DNA of 33,355 bases, taken from the NCBI GenBank assembly GCA_030430755.1, contig JAUIKO010000010.1, positions 1 to 33,355 on the forward strand. Reading direction: 5' to 3'. The position numbers were made by a program, and so were the translations under genes. The notes beneath the pieces are model-generated. The model made no database searches. It saw only the letters and a list, made by a program, of their open reading frames with translations, and was not told the origin of the DNA. The DNA is from Fimbriimonadia bacterium (GTDB lineage Bacteria; Armatimonadota; Fimbriimonadia; Fimbriimonadales; Fimbriimonadaceae). Shown one piece after another: positions 8,205 through 33,355 of this stretch. Each line of letters starts with the position of its first letter. The first letter of the stretch is position 1.

Positions 8205-11200
8205 ATGAAAATAACCCGTTTGTTTACAAAAGCTGGAAAGAGTCCATACGAGAATATTAAGTTTGAATCAAGAACAAGTGAAATCCGTAATCCTGATGGA
8301 TCTGTTGTTTTTAAAATGGAAAATGTCCAGGTACCTGAAACTTGGTCGCAAGTTGCGACAGATATTCTTGCACAGAAATATTCTAGAAAGGCAGGAGTAA
8401 ACAATGCTGAGGGGATGGAAACGGATTCTAGGCAAGTGTTTCATAGACTGGCTGGTTGCTGGAAACAGTGGGGAGAAAAGTTTGGATATTTTGATACTAA
8501 AGAAGATGCTGATGCATTCTATGATGAACTATGTCATATCCTTGCAAATCAAATCGCAGCACCGAACAGCCCGCAATGGTTTAACACAGGTTTGCATTAT
8601 GCTTATGGAATTACAGGTTCAGCACAAGGCCATTATTATGTAGATCCAGTTGAAGGGAAACTGAAAAGAAGCGTGAATGCTTATGAAAGACCTCAGCCAC
8701 ATGCATGTTTTATTTTAAGTGTTGGCGATGATTTAGTTAACAAAGGTGGGATTTTAGATCTCTGGACAAGAGAGTCTCGAATTTTTAAGTATGGTTCTGG
8801 AGTTGGTACTAATTTCAGTAAAATTCGAGGTGCTCATGAACAACTAAGTGGAGGCGGTATTTCGAGTGGGTTGATGAGCTTCTTAAGAGTTGGAGATAGG
8901 AATGCTGGCGCGATTAAATCTGGTGGGACTACCCGTAGAGCTGCTAAAATGGTCTGCTTGGATATGGATCATCCAGAAATCGAAGAGTTTATTTCCTGGA
9001 AAGTAAAAGAAGAACAGAAAGTAGCAAGCTTAGTGACAGGATCAAAACTGAATAGAAAGCATTTAAATAATATCATGCAAGCTTGTCACAGCTGGGAGAA
9101 TAAATTAGAAAAGTTTGATCCTAGAAAAAATAGAAAATTAAAGCAGGCTATAGCAGAAGCAAAGCAGCATATGATATCTGCAAACTATATTCAAAGAGTC
9201 ATCCATATGGCTCAGAACGGGGAGTCTACTATTGACTTCGCTGAATTCGATACTGGCTATGAAAGTGAAGCATATATGACAGTATCAGGGCAAAATTCCA
9301 ATAACTCAATTAGAGTCCCTAACGAATTCCTATCTGCATTAGAGACTAATAGTGATTGGAGGTTGACTTCCAGAATTAATGGAGAAACGGTTAAAACTAT
9401 TTCTTCTAAGAAACTTTGGGATGATGTTTGTCTTTCTGCTTGGTCATGTGCTGATCCTGGTGTGCAGTATGATACTACGATAAATGAATGGCATACTTGC
9501 CCTAAAGGTGGAAGAATTAATGCAAGTAATCCATGTGTAACAGGAGATACTTTTGTTGCTACTGTTCATGGAAATGTGCGGATACTTGATTTAGTAGGAA
9601 AAAGCACAAGTATAGTAAATGGTGAGGGAGATATTGTTCCTGTCAATCAAATATTTAAAACGGGTTATAAAGATGTATATCAGCTTAAAACAGTAAGTGG
9701 TTATAACCTTAAGGTAACTGGTGATCATAAAATATTAACAATGAATCGAGGTGATGTTCCAGCTTCGGAATTAACTCAAGAGGATATGATCTGCTTAGAG
9801 AGGCCTTGTTTTGGTAATCGATTAATGATTAGTGAAATAGCAGCTCAGATTGGTTCTGTGGTTGGATCTGAAGGAGTGAATGGAAATTCCAATGAGCTTC
9901 GATGGGTTATGAAACGTTATGAAATTGATCCAAAAGCAAAAAGATACCATGACATTTTGTGCAATGTTATCGAAAAAAATAGTGATATCTCTTATTCAAA
10001 TGCTACTACTGCTACCTTAGAACGATGGGATGATATTGTTAATGATATAGATTCAGCAGATAATTTAGATGATCTATTAGATAAATCACTTCCATTACTT
10101 ATTCAGTATCATTCAGAAGATAAGACTATAAGCTTTAAAGACAATGTGTTTTTATTAGAAAAAGAATCTTTATCTGAGCTATTAAGAAGTATGTATCAGT
10201 TCTCTGGTATCCGGTTTGATCGAGGTGAAAAACCTTTTCAAGTGTCTATTTCATTTAACAGCTTAAAGATCATTGAACAAATTCAATTACTTCTTTTATC
10301 GTTTGGCATAAAGTCTATCATAACTGAGAATCCTAAGACAATATACAAAGAAAATATTGGTCCAAACCTTACAGCAGACTGTCAGAAAATAACATATACT
10401 CTTACGATATCACCAGCTTCGGAATGGCAATTTTATGCAGATATTGTCAAAAAAGAATCCGATGGTAAGTTGGAAGAATTAATTCTAAAGGGGCAGTCTG
10501 TATGTACGATGACAGACTTTTTATCTGATAGATTCTCTTCTTTGGAGTACTTGGGTAAGGAAGATGTTTTTGATTTAACGGAGCCAATTTCTCATCACTT
10601 TGTAGCAAATGGTTTAATTGTTCATAACTGTTCAGAATATATGTTTTTAGATGACACTGCTTGTAATCTAGCATCTATCAATTTAATTAAATTTTATAAT
10701 CCTGAAACAAAAGATTTTGATATTGAAAGGTATAAACATACGATTCGTCTGTGGACCATTGTTCTTGAGATTAGTGTATTAATGGCACAGTTTCCCAGTG
10801 AATCTATAGCTCAACGAAGTTATGAATACCGTACACTAGGTTTGGGATATGCTAATTTAGGTGCTTTGCTTATGCAAATGGCAATACCATACGATAGCGA
10901 GGAAGGATGTGCTATTACAGGTGCATTAACTGCGATACTTGGTGGTATTTCTTATGCTACGAGTGCTGAAATGTCTGGAGAACTTGGACCATTTGAAAAG
11001 TATCAAGAGAATAAAGCTTCTATGCTAAGAGTTATTCGCAACCATAGAAGAGCAGCGTATAACACACACAAATCTGAATACGAAGATTTAAGTGTAACTC
11101 CGGTAGGAATTGATCCCAAAAAATGTCCTAAAAATTTACTAGAGACTGCTAAAGAATCTTGGGATAAAGCTTTATCCTTAGGTGAGAAGCATGGCTACAG

Positions 11201-12986
11201 GAATGCTCAAGTAACCGTACTTGCCCCTACTGGTACGATAGGTCTATTAATGGATTGTGATACAACTGGAATTGAACCAGATTTTGCCTTAGTAAAATTC
11301 AAGAAATTATCTGGTGGCGGTTATTTTAAGATTATCAATCAATCTATTCCCATTGCATTGAAGAAACTTGGCTATGATAATAATCAGATCAAAGATATCG
11401 TTTTGTATTGTATTGGAAAGAATTCGTTGGTAGGTGCGCCAAAGATTAATCCTGAAACTCTAAAATCTAAAGGCTTCGATCAGGTTGCTATTGAAAAAGT
11501 TGAATCAGCCATGAAGAATGCTTTTGAAATACAGTTTGCCTTCAATAGATGGGTGTTAGGAGATGATTTTTGTATCCATAAGTTAGGATTCTCTGAAGAG
11601 CAGTTAAATGATTGGAACTTTAATATGCTCGATGCTTTAGGATTTACAAAGCAGGATATTCAGCTTGCGAATGACTATGTGTGTGGCACGATGACCATTG
11701 AAGGAGCTCCTCATTTGAAAGAAGAACATTATCCAGTCTTTGATTGTGCTAATAAGTGTGGTCGCTACGGCAAGAGATATATTGAATCAAGTGGTCATAT
11801 TAGACAAATGGCTGCTGCTCAACCGTTTTTAAGTGGTGCTATTAGTAAAACGATTAATTTACCGTCTACGGCATCTATAGAGGATATTTCTAACTGTTAT
11901 TTACTGAGCTGGAAATTAGGAATTAAAGCAAATGCTCTATATCGAGATGGATGTAAATTGAGTCAGCCATTAAGTGCCTCCGTTGATGATGCTGCAGCGG
12001 CAATTCTTGAGGCCTCTTTAGAGGATGAAGTGTTGAGCGATGATATGGATAATAGTCATGATAAGGTGATGGCTACTGCCCAAAGATTAATTTATCGCTA
12101 CATTGCAAAGAAACGATCTCTTCCTGCTAGAAGAAGAGGTTATACTCAAAAAGCAAGAGTAGGTGGACATAATATTTTCCTTAGAACAGGAGAGTACGAT
12201 GATGGAAGCCTCGGTGAGATCTTTATTGACATGCATAGAGAAGGTGCTGCCTTTAGATCTCTTATGAACTGTTTTGCCATTGCTATTTCTATAGGTCTTC
12301 AGCATGGTGTTCCATTAGAGCAGTATGTAGAGAAATTTGTATTTACTCGATTTGAACCTAATGGACCTGTTGGTGGACATAAGTATATTAAAATGGTTAC
12401 TTCCATGGTGGATTATATCTTTAGAGAATTAGCTTTGAGTTACTTAGGTAGAACCGACTTAGCGCAAGTGAAACCTGAAGATTTGAGAGGGGATTCAATA
12501 GGAAATCCTTCTCAGGAAGATAAAAATACTCCTGAGTTTTTTGCAGAAGAAGATAAGGGAGTTATCGATGGTAATGTGCCAGGAATATCAGAAGAGTTAC
12601 ATGGTTCAAATGGTTTTCATGTAGGTCAAGATAGTTTAGCAGAGGATCAAGGTATTGTTTTAGGTGGAGAGTCTGAAATGAATTTGTTAGATTCTGGTAC
12701 TGTTTATCCAGCGACTGGATCACAAGTTAAGGTTAAACTTACAAAAGAAGTTTCAGTATCTAAACAGCTTAATACGGAAGTAGAAAGTACTGTGGAAGAA
12801 AAAAAAGATACCCAGAAAGTTGCTTCAGTAAAAGCAAAAAAATCTAAGCTTGCAAGTCAGATAAAAACAGCTAAATTAAGAGGATATGAGGGTGAAAGTT
12901 GTTCAGAGTGTGGTGCTTTTACAATGGTCCGTAATGGAGTCTGTTTGAAGTGTGATACATGTGGATCGACCAGTGGTTGCTCTTAA
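8205..12986 (+). CDS. nrdJ: Vitamin B12-dependent (class II) ribonucleotide reductase, intein-containing precursor
   Basis: The enzyme reduces ribonucleotides to deoxyribonucleotides using an adenosylcobalamin-generated thiyl radical, without oxygen. The precursor has 1593 residues, of which 444-808 are an intein; the spliced protein would have 1228, normal for the long NrdJ type. After splicing, N442-P443 joins C809-S-E811, recreating the NxCxE radical-site motif. Other marks are [10 protein letters not shown] near the substrate site, [20 protein letters not shown] in the barrel and a C-terminal zinc/redox tail with CSECG and [13 protein letters not shown]. An acidic, low-complexity linker (about residues 1425-1555) separates barrel and tail. 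AGGAG at 8187-8191 is 13 bases before the ATG, a long spacing. nrdR lies directly upstream and a strong hairpin follows. No NrdA/NrdB genes are present in the window. Confidence 0.97.
9534..10628 (+). mobile_element. Intein in NrdJ at the catalytic-cysteine site, with degenerate LAGLIDADG endonuclease
   Basis: The insertion is in frame and 365 residues long. Splicing motifs are intact: Cys1 in CVTGDT (block A), GDHKILT (block B, histidine at 65), [11 protein letters not shown] (block F) and ANGLIVHN (block G, penultimate His, terminal Asn365), followed by Cys+1 of the extein. The middle holds a LAGLIDADG-like endonuclease. Block C reads IGSVVGSEG (Asp replaced by Glu), and block E reads [10 protein letters not shown] (catalytic Asp replaced by Ser). 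Splicing should therefore work while homing is probably lost. Boundaries follow from the conserved extein motif and are exact if splicing is canonical. Confidence 0.95.
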
Positions 12987-16288: not shown

Positions 16289-16918
16289 ATGAAGCCTGCA
16301 GAGATTCATATTCATATTCATAAACATCCGTCTGATACTTTATTATTTGACTTATCATATTTAAAGAATTTATCATCAGAAAAAGAAATTAGAACAAGAA
16401 TTGAAAGGCTAGCAACGAGTTTACACGGTGAATTAAGAGGGTTTAGATTCTATGTTTCCAAAGAAAAAGAGAATAGATTTTTATCTTGTAAGTTTGCACT
16501 AGCGATAGATAGTGACTTCATGAGACATGAATCTATTTTAGTTGCTATTTCGAATGTTTTCTGGGGTGAGGTAGATCCTTTGAAGTTTAATGATCTAGCC
16601 ATCTATTTCGATTATGCCTCGGTAATGGGTTATAGAACATTAAAGTCTTTTGCTTCGGATGATTATGCATTGTCTTCAGAATTATTTTTTGGTCCAGAAC
16701 AAAAAATCGAAGGGATTGAATATAGATTAACAAAAACTAGTCATCAAAATCGTAATCTAACTATTCATAGGGATGTAGCCATAGAATCTAAACAGAATAA
16801 ATCCTATTTGTTGCTTGGATCTTCGAATACTTTAACTTTTTGCCTGATAGTATTTACCAGTCTCATAATATTTTTTCTAACATATGTATATATAAAAAAG
16901 AGAATACATACCCGCTGA
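16289..16918 (+). CDS. Unknown tail-anchored membrane protein
   Basis: I do not recognise this 209-residue protein. The first 170 residues are soluble and begin with an alternating His/Ile run (EIHIHIHKH), a likely exposed beta strand. A mixed alpha/beta region of acidic, aromatic-rich sequence follows. Residues about 182-200 form one strongly hydrophobic helix, followed by a basic tail (KKRIHTR), so the protein is probably inserted by its C-terminus with the bulk in the cytoplasm. It could belong to the rseP-crcB transcription unit (72-base gap) or use its own -10 box. It converges with the FkbM gene 14 bases downstream. No Shine-Dalgarno is evident. Confidence 0.65.
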   Translation: MKPAEIHIHIHKHPSDTLLFDLSYLKNLSSEKEIRTRIERLATSLHGELRGFRFYVSKEKENRFLSCKFALAIDSDFMRHESILVAISNVFWGEVDPLKFNDLAIYFDYASVMGYRTLKSFASDDYALSSELFFGPEQKIEGIEYRLTKTSHQNRNLTIHRDVAIESKQNKSYLLLGSSNTLTFCLIVFTSLIIFFLTYVYIKKRIHTR

Positions 16919-16932
16919 AATAGAATGAAAAA

Positions 16933-18096
16933 TTATAACCATGTGTCCATTTGGCATGTTGGATTACTACATTTTATGAATTCTCTGTCTTCTGTTTTTT
17001 GGAGACTTATCATCCATGAAAGTTCTTTTAACTTATTTTTTTTAATGAAAAACATATCTGATCCAAACCAGCATCCTACTCCAATATCAGTTATGGACTC
17101 ACTAAATTGGATAGGATATAGATCAAACTGATTTAAGTAAGTTATGATATCAGCAGCAAGCCATTGATTATTAGAATAGTAAATAAATCTGGATTCAATT
17201 TCAAGTGAGTCCACAGATTTTAGAGTTTCTTTAGCACCTAATAAAACTTCTTTATCGAAGTTTTCTACGTCAATTTTTAAGTGACAATTTTCAGGGACAA
17301 TAGTATGTTTTTTTAGATAGTGATCAAGCGTATCTAAGTTTACAGATATACGAGTAGAATGTTCTATATCTCCTAGAAGTTTATTTTGAAAGTGAGGGTT
17401 AAAAGAACTACACGCAGATTCTTTCGGTACATAAATGTCTTGACATGATTGTTTGTCAGAAAATCCAATAGGATGTGTTTCCCAAGAATACTCTGTATTA
17501 TTCTTAACATTTTCTAACACTTTATATACTGTAGGAACGGGTTCAAAGGAATAGATCTTATGTTGGTATCCAGCATTATATATCCTGGAGGCGTATTGCC
17601 CACAATTTGCACCGACATCTAATATCATCTTGGTGTCTAAATATTCTAAATACGCAATTTTATTATAATAGGAGAATAAATCCATGGGATTATTTTGTAG
17701 ATTTTTTAAAAGTTTTTGTCTCCAGAAAATATTTAAATCTGTTAATGCGGTGCTTATCTGATCGAAAATGTCTGGATGAGTATTAAAAATATCTTGTTCA
17801 ATACTGTTCATAATGGTTCTTAGGATAGACTCTATCATCTGAACTTCATGGAGATGGTGTTTTGCACTTAGAGTATTTTGAATTTGAGTGCATGAATACA
17901 CAATCTGTTTTGTAATTTCATCTTGAGATAGATTCGTTTCGTATATATCGAAACTCTTTTTAGAGAGTATTTTTATATATAAATGAATCCTAAGAGTGTG
18001 TAGATTATTTGATATGAATGCAGATAAATTTTTCACACAATCTTCCAAATGTATTTTACAAGTTTCGCTATTATCTAATCTGACTGCTGTTTCCAT
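16933..18096 (-). CDS. FkbM-type SAM methyltransferase paralog 1 with N-terminal helical domain
   Basis: The FkbM fold transfers a methyl group from SAM, usually to sugar hydroxyls of glycans or secondary metabolites. The C-terminal half carries the SAM-binding loop DVGANCGQY (160-168), the acidic SAM ribose contact SFEPVP (183-188) and IDVENFDKEVLLGA (275-288), all intact. The first about 150 residues form a helical domain shared only with the three neighbouring paralogs (VKNLSAFISNNLHTLR is its best-kept part). The last 35 residues end in LSWMISLQK and a C-x2-P-x-C-x4-W-L terminus. Of the array it is the last gene in transcription order; 20 bases separate it from paralog 2, so co-transcription is likely. 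Its substrate is unknown; surface glycan or flagellar glycan methylation is a guess. Confidence 0.82.
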   Translation of the reverse strand: METAVRLDNSETCKIHLEDCVKNLSAFISNNLHTLRIHLYIKILSKKSFDIYETNLSQDEITKQIVYSCTQIQNTLSAKHHLHEVQMIESILRTIMNSIEQDIFNTHPDIFDQISTALTDLNIFWRQKLLKNLQNNPMDLFSYYNKIAYLEYLDTKMILDVGANCGQYASRIYNAGYQHKIYSFEPVPTVYKVLENVKNNTEYSWETHPIGFSDKQSCQDIYVPKESACSSFNPHFQNKLLGDIEHSTRISVNLDTLDHYLKKHTIVPENCHLKIDVENFDKEVLLGAKETLKSVDSLEIESRFIYYSNNQWLAADIITYLNQFDLYPIQFSESITDIGVGCWFGSDMFFIKKNKLKELSWMISLQKTEDREFIKCSNPTCQMDTWL

Positions 18097-18116
18097 GGCA
18101 TATCTCTTTTATATTT

Positions 18117-19283
18117 TTAAATCCAACTATGAATACCACAGCTTGGTCTTTCACAAACTGTTTTAGCTCTTTTTTCTATTTTCTGTAGACTTATCATCCA
18201 GGATAGTTCTTCTAAAATATCTTGTTTAATAAATATTAAATCACAACCGTAATAACTGGCACAAGATATATCTAGAACCTGATCGAATAATTGAATAGGA
18301 TGTAGTCTGAAAGGATTTAAATAGGTGATAATATCCGATGCTAGCCATTGATTGGTGCTGTAGTAAATAAATCGTGTTTCAATTTCTAGAGCTTTTATTC
18401 TGTTTATGGTTTCCCTAGAACCTAAAAGAACTTCTTTCTCATAGTTTTCAACATCTATTTTTAGATATCCATTCTTAAAAGAAATATTATTTTGTTCTAA
18501 ATAATGGTCAAGAGTATCCAGTTGAAGAGTTTCTCTAGCAATATCAGTATCTTTGCACAGGAGTTCTTTTTGAAAATATGGATTGAGTGTACTACAGGCA
18601 GAATGCTTAGATACATAAATAGTTTTAGATTCTTGTTTTTCACCTAATCCTTGATAGTGTGTATACCATTGATAGTTATGAGAGTTTTTTTGATTTTCTA
18701 AGGCATGGTATAGAACTGAAACAGGTTCAAAAGAGTGTATGATTCCATTATAACCTAGTGAAAAAGCTTTTTTTGCATACTGCCCCCCGTTTGCACCAGC
18801 ATCGATAATTGTATCGATATTTAAAAAGTATTTAAGTGCTAGCTTTAGGTATTTTCCAAAATATTCTTGTACTTCTTTTTTATAGATGATATTCTTAATT
18901 TTTTGTTTCATATGAAGTTCAAGGGTTATGAGGAGCTGGTTGAGATTATGATAATTTTCTTCCGATTTGTTTTCGTTGATTTTATGCTTCATAAACATAA
19001 TTTGGTCAACAACCATGGCAATTTCTCTAGCATCATCCGGATGATACTTGTCATGTAATGAATTTTTAATGGCTAAGCAGCATTCTGAAAAAATATTTTC
19101 AATATCAGCTTGGCTTATCTCTCTTAGTTTTGCAAATTCTGTTTTGTTGTAGAGTACATTTAAATAAAGCCTCATTCTTAGGGCATGAAGATTGTTAGAA
19201 ATAATAAAAGCGATATTTTTAACACCGTCTTTAATTTCCGGATGAATATAATCTTTTGGGTTATCAACTAAAAGTGTTTGCAT
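18117..19283 (-). CDS. FkbM-type SAM methyltransferase paralog 2 with N-terminal helical domain
   Basis: The protein has 388 residues in the same order as paralog 1: a helical domain (1-150; VKNIAFIISNNLHALR), the SAM loop DAGANGGQY (161-169), SFEPVS, then IDVENYEKEVLLGS, and the shared tail LSWMISLQK with C-x2-P-x-C-x4-W-I at the very end. All methyltransferase motifs are intact. It is more like paralog 1 than paralog 3 in the tail. Spacing to the upstream paralog is 18 bases. The conserved block NQWLASDIITYL, shared with the others, probably forms part of the acceptor pocket, but the acceptor is unknown. Confidence 0.82.
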   Translation of the reverse strand: MQTLLVDNPKDYIHPEIKDGVKNIAFIISNNLHALRMRLYLNVLYNKTEFAKLREISQADIENIFSECCLAIKNSLHDKYHPDDAREIAMVVDQIMFMKHKINENKSEENYHNLNQLLITLELHMKQKIKNIIYKKEVQEYFGKYLKLALKYFLNIDTIIDAGANGGQYAKKAFSLGYNGIIHSFEPVSVLYHALENQKNSHNYQWYTHYQGLGEKQESKTIYVSKHSACSTLNPYFQKELLCKDTDIARETLQLDTLDHYLEQNNISFKNGYLKIDVENYEKEVLLGSRETINRIKALEIETRFIYYSTNQWLASDIITYLNPFRLHPIQLFDQVLDISCASYYGCDLIFIKQDILEELSWMISLQKIEKRAKTVCERPSCGIHSWI

Positions 19284-19301
19284 CTTGTGTCCTCTTTAAA
19301 T

Positions 19302-20468
19302 TTATATAATGGATTGAGTTCTGCATCCAGGAGAATCGCATCTAAGTGTATTTCTGTTATTGTTGTATATTGAGTTAAAGAGATCATTTAACTCTTTTGC
19401 GATGCTTTTTTTAATGAAAATTAAGTCACAACCATACCATATTGCTGTGCTGATATCTTTAACAGGTTCATAGAACTGGAATGGTACGAATTCAAACTGA
19501 TGTAAATAACTAATAATGTCTCCAATTAACCATTGATCTTTAGCATAGTATATAAACCGGGCTTCTACCTCTACAGCTAATGCTTTATCAAGAGTATCCT
19601 TTGCACCTAATAGAACTTCTTTTTCAAAATTTTCAACATCTATTTTAATATAACTATTCTTGAAATCGAGATTATGTACTCTGATATAATCATCAAGCGA
19701 TGTAACCTGTACTGTTTCTTGATTTACTTTGAACCCCATCGATAACATTTCTTTTTGGATGTTTTCATTAAAAGAACTACAAGCGGAGTTACTAGCTATA
19801 TTAATATTTAGTCTTTCGTCTTTACTTCCAATGGCTGTTTGATGAAGGCTCCAATGGTATGAAGTTGCATTCTTGATCCTTTTTAGGGCTTCAAAATTGA
19901 TGGACACAGGCTCGAAAGAATGAATTTGGTTTTTATATCCTATGGAAAAGATTTTTTCTGCGTACTGACCAACATTTGCTCCAATGTCAAAGATAGTGTC
20001 TATGTTCAAATAATCAAGAAGGAAATTTCTATAGTAATCTCCTAAGGATTCTGTTTTTGCTGAATTTATGTAATCTGTAAATGATTTGTCCCAAAAATCG
20101 TAGAGATTCTCTGATGTTTTTAGTAAAAGTTTAAGATGATCTTTGTTTTTAAAGGAAGAGTAGTCTTGCATTCCAGATATTAAACTAGAAATCAATCCGG
20201 ATATAAATTGACTGTTCTCTTCGTTTTTGCTGAAGACAATACTGTTTTTAATTTTTTTAAGATCCTCTATGCTACCGCTTAGAAACATATCGAATTGCTG
20301 GATATCATTCATAGGAATATCAAAAATTCTTTGTAGTTGATTTTTGACTTTTAAACTTAAGAGACTATTTAGTATAAGATGTGAGAAATTTTTCACACAT
20401 TCAGACGTGTGGATGTGATTGATAAATTTTATATTGTCTAATTCTATTGAATCAATTCCTATTTTCAT
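19302..20468 (-). CDS. FkbM-type SAM methyltransferase paralog 3 with N-terminal helical domain
   Basis: The protein has 388 residues with the SAM loop DIGANVGQY (161-169), SFEPVS and IDVENFEKEVLLGA intact, so it is probably an active enzyme. The N-terminal helical domain is recognisable (ECVKNFSHLILNSLLSLK). The tail is the most divergent of the four: the SWMISLQK segment is replaced by LFNSIYNNN, and the terminus is C-x2-P-x-C-x4-I-I, keeping both cysteines and the proline but not the Trp. It follows paralog 4 after 53 bases and precedes paralog 2 by 18 bases. Confidence 0.82.
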   Translation of the reverse strand: MKIGIDSIELDNIKFINHIHTSECVKNFSHLILNSLLSLKVKNQLQRIFDIPMNDIQQFDMFLSGSIEDLKKIKNSIVFSKNEENSQFISGLISSLISGMQDYSSFKNKDHLKLLLKTSENLYDFWDKSFTDYINSAKTESLGDYYRNFLLDYLNIDTIFDIGANVGQYAEKIFSIGYKNQIHSFEPVSINFEALKRIKNATSYHWSLHQTAIGSKDERLNINIASNSACSSFNENIQKEMLSMGFKVNQETVQVTSLDDYIRVHNLDFKNSYIKIDVENFEKEVLLGAKDTLDKALAVEVEARFIYYAKDQWLIGDIISYLHQFEFVPFQFYEPVKDISTAIWYGCDLIFIKKSIAKELNDLFNSIYNNNRNTLRCDSPGCRTQSII

Positions 20469-20521
20469 GTTTTTAATCTCATTCGTTATTTCTAAAATAT
20501 GGTGTATATATCCGTATCACC

Positions 20522-21679
20522 TTATAACCATGCTCGAGTACCACAGCTCGGTTTGGAGCACTTAAGTACCTCTCTCGATTTACTTTTCTGCAGTGATATC
20601 ATTAATGAAAGTTCTTCGATGATGTGTTTTTGAACAAAAAGAATCTTGCACTCTTTCCAGTTACCGTACTTTAAATATAAGTGGGGTTCTAGAAATTGAA
20701 TAGGATGCAGATGATGTTTATTTAGGCAAGTAATAACATCTGTGATATCCCAATCATTATTAGATTGTGATGAAAAAGATACATGCAACTGTAACATATC
20801 AATTTTAGGTAAGAGAGTATCTAATTCTTGGAGAATTGTTTTTACAGGAAGTTTTGAACTCAGCATCACAGAACTGTTCTTTATTGGGATATTGTGAGTA
20901 GATAAAAAAGCATCCAGGGATGATAACGATTCGCTATTGTGTGATGGAGCTGAAGAACGTACTTTATTCATCGAAAAGTTTGAGTTTTCATGGGATTTAT
21001 GGACAAATTCCTCTGTGTGAAATAGAGAGGTTGTTTCCAGTGTATTTGTTTTTAAAATGGCATCTAATTCAAGTTTAAATGGAGTATTTGTATTGTTAAA
21101 GGAGTTCTCTTTAACAATGAGGGTATAGAGATTTTCTATATCAGGACCATAAAAACTCTTAAGGGAATCTTGTTGTAAGTTATCTGAGATATGAAAGATC
21201 TGTTTTATTTCTAAGAATTTTATAAGGGCTTGCTGATGTATTTTGTCAAAATCGTTATTGTAATATTGTGAAAGAGTAATATTGCGTAGTGTATCATTCC
21301 AGTATTTTTGCAGATCAGTAAGAGTGTTTAGTATGGGAATAAGCTGTGCTGCTCCAATCGAGGTTTTCTGGTTTACAATAAGGAGTACTTTATTGATTTT
21401 CTCCATGCAGGATGTATAATCTACTATTGAACTCATTTGATAAAGATTTTTTTGAATGATAGCGCAGTATGTTTCAATTGCTTTTATTCTATTTTGTACA
21501 CTGCTTTCTTTCGGGAATTTATCACTAATAGATAATTCTGCTTTACCTAGGTTGAGGAGTATGAGATGTATTTTAAGTGTATATAAATTATTTGTAATTA
21601 ATAACGAAAGAGATGTACTTTTATTATCAGTAAGATCAGAATGATCTGTGGTATGATGAAGATTCTCAATTGTACTCAT
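20522..21679 (-). CDS. Degenerate FkbM paralog 4: intact frame, methyltransferase motifs lost
   Basis: This 385-residue protein aligns with the three genes downstream over its whole length. The N-terminal helical domain is kept (SLLITNNLYTLKIHL), as are LDAFLSTHNIPIKNS, DITDVITCLNKHHLHPIQF, the LSLMISLQK segment and the C-x2-P-x-C-x4-W-L end. The SAM loop reads FHISDNLQQ (162-170) where the others have D(V/A/I)GANxGQ. The FEP segment is not recognisable, and the IDVEN segment reads VMLSSKLPVK. It should not bind SAM. The frame has no stop over 385 codons, so it is not a simple pseudogene; a regulatory, scaffolding or partner role is an inference. It is the first gene of the four-gene minus-strand array. 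Confidence 0.78.
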   Translation of the reverse strand: MSTIENLHHTTDHSDLTDNKSTSLSLLITNNLYTLKIHLILLNLGKAELSISDKFPKESSVQNRIKAIETYCAIIQKNLYQMSSIVDYTSCMEKINKVLLIVNQKTSIGAAQLIPILNTLTDLQKYWNDTLRNITLSQYYNNDFDKIHQQALIKFLEIKQIFHISDNLQQDSLKSFYGPDIENLYTLIVKENSFNNTNTPFKLELDAILKTNTLETTSLFHTEEFVHKSHENSNFSMNKVRSSAPSHNSESLSSLDAFLSTHNIPIKNSSVMLSSKLPVKTILQELDTLLPKIDMLQLHVSFSSQSNNDWDITDVITCLNKHHLHPIQFLEPHLYLKYGNWKECKILFVQKHIIEELSLMISLQKSKSREVLKCSKPSCGTRAWL

Positions 21680-32873: not shown

Positions 32874-32991
32874 TATATTTACTTAATCATAATGTTTTAA
32901 ATACTGTCGGTAATACAGCTTGCTAGTACAACTTGCTGCCAGTATGAATTCTGGCACTAATGCCCCTTCTGCATACTAGTATTAAAACTAT

Positions 32992-33020
32992 TTTAGACCA
33001 ATACTGGTAATTGTTATAAT
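32992..33020 (+). promoter_or_regulatory. Flagellin promoter with extended -10
   Basis: TTTAGA (32992-32997), a 17-base gap, then TATAAT (33015-33020) preceded by TGT, an extended -10. Transcription should begin near 33027, giving a leader of about 77 bases. It looks sigma-70-like; I see no sigma-28 consensus. The motif ATACTG recurs around it (32901 and 33001, inverted at 32940-32945), with the palindrome ATACTAGTAT at 32973-32982, possible operator sites. Confidence 0.6.
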
Positions 33021-33103: not shown

Positions 33104-33355
33104 ATGGCATTTAGAATTAATACAGGCCCATTAGCATTAAGGGCTTTAGGTAATGTTTCATCAGTTAGTAACAGTTTAGCTACATCGATGCAGAGATTAG
33201 GTAGTGGTCTAAAAGTAGGTAGATCAGGAGATGATCCAGCAGCTTTTGTAGGTGTTTCCAGAATGAGAGACAGCGCTCAAAGTTTAGATACTTCTATTCG
33301 AATTACTCAAGAAAACACAAACTACATGAAAACTGCAGAAGGTGCTCTTGATGAA
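33104..33355 (+). CDS. Flagellin, N-terminal part (gene runs off the window)
   Basis: The 84 codons present encode the conserved flagellin D0/D1 start: FRINTGPLALRAL, then SMQRLGSGLKVGRSGDDPAA and, at the edge, TAEGALDE. These correspond to the family's INTN..AL..L, SLERLSSGLRINRAADD and LQTAEGALxE. The protein is exported by the flagellar type III system and polymerises into the filament. The start is set by a strong Shine-Dalgarno (GGAGGA, nine bases before the ATG). Notable differences are Gly-Pro after INT and SGDDPAAFVGVSRMR in place of the usual AADDAAGLAISE. No other flagellar genes are in the window. Confidence 0.93.
   Translation, partial: MAFRINTGPLALRALGNVSSVSNSLATSMQRLGSGLKVGRSGDDPAAFVGVSRMRDSAQSLDTSIRITQENTNYMKTAEGALDE

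What the first reader, a model, noticed from the sequence alone, without database searches (positions are those of the whole stretch)
16933..21679. Four tandem FkbM-like paralogs sharing an unrecognised N-terminal domain and a terminal Cys-Pro-Cys tail
All four proteins (385-388 residues) end exactly in C-x2-P-x-C-x4 plus two hydrophobic residues (WL, WI, II, WL), preceded in three by LSxMISLQK. All four also share about 150 helical residues before the methyltransferase fold. Ordinary FkbM proteins have neither. A conserved motif at the extreme C-terminus suggests a metal or disulfide clip, a localisation tag, or a docking tail for a partner. Close spacing (18-53 bases) and shared strand suggest one operon, perhaps a multi-subunit or combinatorial glycan-methylating system.
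Basis: partly seen in the sequence, partly recalled or inferred. Interest (0 to 1): 0.68.

Follow-up and report, generated by a model that had tools for sequence, protein, structure and literature searches.

The report
FliS-like chaperone–FkbM methyltransferase fusion paralogs
Four neighbouring genes in a small-genome bacterium encode proteins that join a domain folded like FliS, the chaperone that carries flagellin to the export gate, to a sugar-type methyltransferase, so they may be enzymes that dock on newly made flagellin and chemically decorate it before it is exported.

Summary
In detail: four tandem minus-strand genes (387, 388, 388 and 385 aa; gaps 20, 18 and 53 bp), each ending C-x2-P-x-C-x4-[WI]-[LI]. 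Only three have a detectable FkbM domain; the fourth has lost the SAM motif. The family occurs in this genome and its one sister species (also four copies, dispersed), and in none of 289 other genomes of the phylum (probably Armatimonadota). In the sister the tail is kept in two copies, has lost both cysteines in one, and is absent in one, so it is not essential.

FliS entries fill the top eight rows for the isolated domain and are the only helix bundles near the top for the whole protein. Sequence support is weak. Both genomes have ordinary FliS and 4-5 flagellins, and one fusion gene carries the flagellin promoter-like element. The window itself ends inside a flagellin gene.

Best reading: a FliS-like domain docks the enzyme on flagellin (or another export substrate) for methylation of the protein or its glycan. 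Flagellin binding, substrate and the tail's role are inferred. It resembles Caulobacter FlmG in design, but with different domains on both sides.

The parts
16933..18096 (-). Copy 1 (387 aa): FliS-like N-terminal domain + FkbM methyltransferase + Cys tail
   Evidence: ORF; PF05050 E=1.5e-12 and TIGR01444 77 bits over cut-off 37.7
18117..19283 (-). Copy 2 (388 aa): same architecture
   Evidence: ORF; PF05050 E=1.6e-11 and TIGR01444 64.6 bits
19302..20468 (-). Copy 3 (388 aa): same architecture; the copy modelled by AlphaFold2
   Evidence: ORF; TIGR01444 84.5 bits; model mean pLDDT 79, pTM 0.80
20522..21679 (-). Copy 4 (385 aa): same length, tail and N-domain, but SAM motif lost; probable pseudoenzyme; first gene of the putative operon
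   Evidence: ORF; no FkbM match; DIGANVGQ replaced by HISDNLQQ
20061..20405 (-). FliS-fold four-helix bundle of copy 3 (residues 22-136)
   Evidence: VIA-align: 3k1i Z 13.9, rmsd 2.0 over 105 of 106; 3iqc Z 14.2; 1orj Z 13.6; 6lea Z 13.6; 5maw Z 13.1
17689..18039 (-). Equivalent N-terminal bundle of copy 1 (residues 20-136, by alignment)
   Evidence: alignment; profile hit
18870..19220 (-). Equivalent N-terminal bundle of copy 2 (by alignment)
   Evidence: alignment; profile hit
21269..21628 (-). Equivalent N-terminal bundle of copy 4 (by alignment)
   Evidence: alignment; profile hit
16936..16971 (-). Tail CSNPTCQMDTWL
   Evidence: pattern scan
18120..18155 (-). Tail CERPSCGIHSWI
   Evidence: pattern scan
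19305..19340 (-). Tail CDSPGCRTQSII
   Evidence: pattern scan
20525..20560 (-). Tail CSKPSCGTRAWL
   Evidence: pattern scan
33104..33355 (+). 5' end of a flagellin gene, cut by the contig end: a candidate substrate of the fusions
   Evidence: PF00669 hit G000:C18:33116-33355; ORF
32975..33016 (+). Promoter-like element shared by six flagellin genes of the two species and found upstream of one fusion gene in the sister species

Best explanation
Each protein is a modular flagellin-modifying enzyme. An N-terminal four-helix bundle with the FliS fold docks on flagellin (or a related export substrate) in the cytoplasm, most likely on its C-terminal helices as FliS does. The C-terminal FkbM domain then transfers a methyl group from SAM to a sugar on that substrate or to the substrate itself. 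The docking halves have diverged much more than the catalytic halves, which fits paralogs specialised for different flagellins. Copy 4 has lost catalysis and would act as a binding-only partner or regulator. The cysteine tail is a non-catalytic accessory whose two cysteines act as a pair (metal or disulfide, or docking). Shown: the domain layout, the predicted FliS fold, the loss of the SAM motif in copy 4, flagellins and an ordinary FliS in both genomes, and the flagellin-type upstream element on one fusion gene. Inferred: flagellin binding, methylation target, paralog specialisation, and the role of the tail.
For: Fold: in the full-length model FliS structures from several species score Z 13.1-14.2 with rmsd 2.0-2.5 A over nearly their whole length and are the only helix bundles in the top 50. 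In a separate model of the domain from a different homolog, FliS entries are ranks 1-8, Z 10.4-11.8. Sequence: hhalign of the N-domain profile against FliS of the same bacterial family scores 20.9, P=0.013, in a helix-for-helix register ending at the W of FliS L-R-x-x-W; none of 600 block-shuffled controls reached 20.8. Context: ordinary FliS in both genomes; 4-5 flagellins plus FlgL. Regulation: in 322 kb counted over both strands, the best non-training match to the flagellin upstream element lies 79 bp before fusion gene S4. Divergence: N-domain 15-29% identity against 37-50% for the methyltransferase core among copies other than copy 4. Precedents: FkbM enzymes in flagellin glycosylation islands (PMC4875605, PMC5109656); FlmG, a glycosyltransferase with an N-terminal flagellin-binding domain (PMC7591256).
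Against: PF02561 does not hit the N-domain, and the tool warns that helical bundles can give Z up to about 13-14 by chance. For the isolated domain the gap to the best unrelated bundle is small (11.8 against 10.2). Foldseek alone gives weak E-values for it (0.16 or worse). hhalign probability is low (3.4%); with gappy FliS columns removed the score falls to 19.6, which one or two of 600 shuffles reach. No fusion gene adjoins a flagellin or fliS. The flagellin-type element is clear for only one of five fusion upstream regions. No Maf-type (PF01973) or true NeuB gene was found, so a flagellin glycan is not established.
Confidence: 0.55

Rival explanations
1. Surface-glycan (LPS, capsule or S-layer) O-methyltransferases that gained a generic four-helix dimerisation or docking domain in this genus; the FliS likeness is coincidental.
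For: FkbM proteins usually act on sugars of surface polysaccharides or natural products (general knowledge). No sequence match to FliS. Four-helix bundles are common.
Against: FliS entries, not bundles in general, fill the top ranks for two models. No glycan cluster was seen next to the fusions (inspection). One fusion gene has the flagellin-type upstream element.
Confidence: 0.27
2. The proteins are now mainly chaperones: FliS-like flagellin (or FlaG, FlgM) chaperones with a vestigial or regulatory methyltransferase half, as copy 4 suggests.
For: Copy 4 keeps the N-domain, C-region and tail with a dead SAM site and an intact 385-codon frame.
Against: Seven of eight copies keep the SAM and KxDxE-type motifs, and the methyltransferase core is the best conserved long part. 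An ordinary FliS is already present.
Confidence: 0.1
3. Fast-evolving effectors secreted into a host, with the conserved C-terminus as a secretion signal; the genome is small and looks host-associated.
For: Small genome against relatives of 1.7-6.5 Mb; rapid divergence (about 35% identity against 55-78% for core proteins); a conserved extreme C-terminus.
Against: The tail is missing or altered in two of eight copies and is not shared by other proteins. No secretion system was tested.
Confidence: 0.05

Closest known systems
FkbM family methyltransferases (TIGR01444 / PF05050; solved example 2py6)
   Same: Copies 1-3 exceed the curated cut-offs; SAM motif D-x-GAN-x-GQ; VIA-align Z 14.2 over 163 residues with 2py6
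   Different: Extra FliS-fold domain in front and Cys-Pro-Cys tail behind; copy 4 has lost the SAM motif
FliS flagellin export chaperone (PF02561; 1orj, 3iqc, 5maw, 6lea)
   Same: Four-helix bundle of the same topology and length, disordered N-terminus before helix 1, Trp in the last helix at the FliS LRxxW position
   Different: No detectable PF02561 match; fused to an enzyme; a separate ordinary FliS exists in the same genome
FlmG of Caulobacter (modular flagellin glycosyltransferase, PMC7591256)
   Same: N-terminal domain meant to bind flagellin, C-terminal transferase; several flagellins in the cell
   Different: The transferase is a methyltransferase, not a glycosyltransferase; the docking domain is FliS-like; flagellin binding not shown here
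FkbM and FliB methyltransferases of flagellin modification islands (PMC4875605, PMC5109656, PMC8598068)
   Same: Methylation of flagellin or its glycan as the proposed task
   Different: Those FkbM enzymes are encoded between flagellar genes and are not reported there as fused to a chaperone-like domain; FliB is a [4Fe-4S] enzyme of another class

Membership tests
FkbM methyltransferase (TIGR01444/PF05050) | Score over the curated cut-off | tested here: met
   Copies 1-3: 77, 64.6 and 84.5 bits against 37.7; copy 4 no match
FkbM methyltransferase (TIGR01444/PF05050) | SAM-binding motif intact | tested here: met
   Copies 1-3 and the four sister copies; not met in copy 4
FkbM methyltransferase (TIGR01444/PF05050) | O-methylation of a hydroxyl on a sugar or natural product | not testable with these tools
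   Needs enzyme assay
FliS (PF02561) | Score over Pfam cut-off | tested here: not met
   No hit for any N-domain even at E<=10; the genome-wide FliS search finds only the ordinary FliS
FliS (PF02561) | Four-helix bundle of FliS topology | tested here: met
   Predicted models: Z 13.1-14.2 in the whole protein; ranks 1-8 for the isolated domain
FliS (PF02561) | Profile similarity to FliS | tested here: inconclusive
   hhalign P=0.013, above all 600 block shuffles at 20.9 but low absolute probability
FliS (PF02561) | Binds flagellin C-terminal helices | not testable with these tools
   No complex prediction or binding assay available
FlmG-type modular flagellin modification enzyme | Flagellin-binding domain fused to a transferase | tested here: inconclusive
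   Transferase met; binding domain inferred from fold only
Nonulosonic-acid flagellin glycosylation (Maf/NeuB) | Maf (PF01973) and NeuB (PF03102) in the genome | tested here: not met
   No PF01973 match; the single PF03102 match looks like a DAHP-synthase-type protein by its sequence

The most novel reading that the evidence does not exclude
A FliS-derived chaperone domain was captured by an FkbM enzyme in one small-genome lineage, giving a set of flagellin-specific 'modify while escorting' methyltransferases, each matched to a flagellin paralog, with a catalytically dead member and a cysteine-paired tail regulating docking.
Probability: 0.3. Interest if true: 0.72.

Novelty: new variant of a known kind. 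Interest (0 to 1): 0.55.

Why it matters
How cytoplasmic modification enzymes pick flagellin out of the proteome before export is an open question, answered so far in the papers read here for FlmG, whose N-terminal domain binds flagellin. A FliS-fold domain fused to a methyltransferase would be a second, independent solution that borrows the export chaperone itself. It makes a direct prediction that can be tested by pull-down with flagellins from the same genome. It also gives a likely function to a domain with no sequence match in Pfam or the PDB.

Tried and rejected
Tail as a general localisation tag: rejected, no other true ORF carries it. Tail as an essential part of the family: rejected by the sister copies. 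Gene conversion as the reason for tail likeness between copies 1 and 4: unlikely, since third-position identity there is only 30% against 56% aa identity. N-domain shared with other proteins: none in 291 genomes of the phylum beyond the eight fusions, apart from one weak hit (E=0.001) that was not followed up. N-domain by sequence: Pfam and PDB sequence searches gave only chance matches. Spread on plasmids or phages: only the methyltransferase half matches; viral contigs and genome-contig scans returned FkbM-domain matches, and none of the returned matches covers the whole N-terminal domain. Maf and NeuB as glycan partners: not found. One-to-one orthology of copies between species: not resolved by trees. 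Flagellin number as a marker of the fusion: weak, since flagellated relatives mostly show 3-5 Flagellin_N matches (FlgL included) without any fusion. Flagellin-type element upstream of the window operon: not found (score 1.2).

Full report
Observation. The window (contig C18 of a 1.48 Mb, 19-contig genome) holds four same-strand ORFs of 387, 388, 388 and 385 aa with gaps of 20, 18 and 53 bp. All end in C-x2-P-x-C-x4-[WI]-[LI]; three have LSxMISLQK before it. A pattern scan of the whole genome and of its sister species for this tail plus stop finds, in this genome, the four genes and three sites that are not such tails: two have an internal stop and one lies antisense to another gene.

Distribution. 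The genome belongs to a family (85 genomes held) that includes the record JAKOXK010000005.1, titled Armatimonadota bacterium: locus L009 (G035) and L062 are the same sequence. The phylum is therefore probably Armatimonadota; Fimbriimonadaceae is my guess. A profile of the N-terminal domain hits only this genome and one congener (G060, 1.5 Mb, four copies) among 291 genomes of the phylum, apart from one weak E=0.001 match not followed up. In G060 the four copies sit at four separate loci. Their tails are CGSPLCSALHWI, YPSKYTSSLHWL (both cysteines lost), CSSPGCGIECIV, and none. Core proteins of the two species are 55-78% identical in most cases, the fusions about 35%. Trees do not resolve one-to-one orthologs. 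Each genome also has one other FkbM gene over the cut-off, outside this family.

What the N-terminal domain is. No Pfam or PDB sequence match exists. An AlphaFold2 model of copy 3 (mean pLDDT 79, pTM 0.80; eight-sequence alignment) shows a four-helix bundle, a methyltransferase fold, and a poorly defined tail. Second-look alignment to solved structures put FliS entries at Z 13.1-14.2: 3k1i rmsd 2.0 A over 105 of its 106 residues, 1orj 2.1 over 113, 6lea 2.0 over 104, 5maw 2.3 over 104, 3iqc 2.5 over 114. They are the only helix bundles in the top 50. Because bundles can match by chance, I modelled the N-domain alone from a different homolog (sister copy S1; mean pLDDT 78) and searched again: FliS entries took ranks 1-8 (Z 10.4-11.8), ahead of designed bundles, GPCR fusions and sensor domains (10.2 and below). 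The two models share the same eight sequences, so they are not fully independent. Profile comparison with FliS from the same bacterial family gives a weak but in-register alignment (P=0.013; the helix-4 Trp falls on the W of FliS LRxxW). None of 600 block-shuffled FliS alignments reached 20.8, although the observed score drops to 19.6 when gappy columns are removed, which one or two shuffles reach. I read this as a FliS-fold domain, probably a remote homolog, with homology not proven.

Flagellar context. Both genomes have one ordinary FliS. Flagellin_N searches give six matches in each. In the window's genome these are two complete flagellins, two 5' ends that stop at contig ends (one is the end of this window), one contig start that overlaps both of those ends by 127 bases, and an FlgL-type protein: at least four flagellins. 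The sister has five plus an FlgL-type protein. Flagellated relatives without the fusion mostly show 3-5 matches, so flagellin number alone is not telling. Six flagellin genes of the two species share an upstream element about 95-108 bp before the start codon. Scanning 322 kb (both strands counted) with a matrix of it, the best match outside the six training sites lies 79 bp before fusion gene S4 of the sister (score 17.3; 99th percentile of random 300-bp stretches 6.5). The other fusion genes and both fliS genes lack a clear match, so this is support from one gene.

How it most likely works (inferred from here on). FliS is a four-helix bundle around which the C-terminal ~40 residues of flagellin wrap before export (PMC7248283). 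A FliS-fold domain in front of a methyltransferase would hold the enzyme on flagellin in the cytoplasm. FkbM enzymes occur in flagellin glycosylation islands of enterobacteria and Geobacillus (PMC4875605, PMC5109656), so methylation of a flagellin-borne sugar or of flagellin itself is the natural guess. Caulobacter FlmG shows the same design principle, an N-terminal flagellin-binding domain that sets the specificity of a C-terminal transferase (PMC7591256). No Maf-type gene was found, and the single NeuB-model match looks like a DAHP synthase, so no known flagellin glycan pathway was identified. Among the seven copies with a SAM motif the N-domain is 15-29% identical while the methyltransferase core is 37-50% identical. 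That fits docking halves adapted to different partners, but relaxed constraint would look similar.

The tail and the dead copy. Copy 4 keeps an intact frame, the N-domain, the C-terminal region and the tail while its SAM site is gone. Its tail is 56% identical to that of copy 1 at protein level with only 30% identity at third codon positions, so the likeness reflects protein-level constraint rather than recent gene conversion. The tail therefore has a role apart from catalysis in this genome. In the sister copy S2 both cysteines are replaced together while the final HWL remains, and S4 lacks the tail, so the cysteines act as a dispensable pair. The model is unreliable there (pLDDT under 50), and I do not commit beyond a paired-cysteine accessory for docking or stability.

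Verdict. A real, lineage-restricted family with a domain pairing for which I found no description in the papers searched (the library is open-access only). Novelty: new variant of a known kind (modular flagellin-modifying enzyme), on condition that the FliS-like domain binds flagellin.

Noticed in passing
window 8205-12986 (+): NrdJ-type ribonucleotide reductase of 1593 aa that appears to carry an intein between ASNPC and HNCSEY; the sister homolog (L193 2246-6961) is 1571 aa and 74% identical. Read from the sequence, not tested.
   Followed up: no
window 33104-33355; L244 start; L245 end: Three contigs break inside flagellin genes with near-identical 5' ends (127-base overlaps), so the assembly hides at least one flagellin.
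   Followed up: partly
window 32975-33016 and L243, L245, L248, L250, L251: A shared element ([AC][CT][TA][GA]GTAATT with a TAAA-like box upstream) about 95-108 bp before six flagellin genes; possibly the flagellar sigma-factor promoter of this lineage.
   Followed up: partly
whole genome G000 and sister G060: Genomes of 1.48 and 1.5 Mb, about 30-38% GC in the window, inside a family whose other members are 1.7-6.5 Mb: a small-genome, still flagellated lineage, probably of Armatimonadota.
   Followed up: no
G057 / record JADZEW010000028.1 (L047): A record titled Methanoregulaceae archaeon is placed in the same family and has bacterial flagellin and FliS hits; the title is probably wrong.
   Followed up: partly
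L018 309-1130 (-): HlyD-family secretion protein next to the genome's other FkbM gene; could belong to a peptide-export system. Not tested further.
   Followed up: no
window 16289-16918 (+): 209-aa ORF with a C-terminal hydrophobic stretch and no Pfam match at E<=0.01, convergent with the fusion genes.
   Followed up: no
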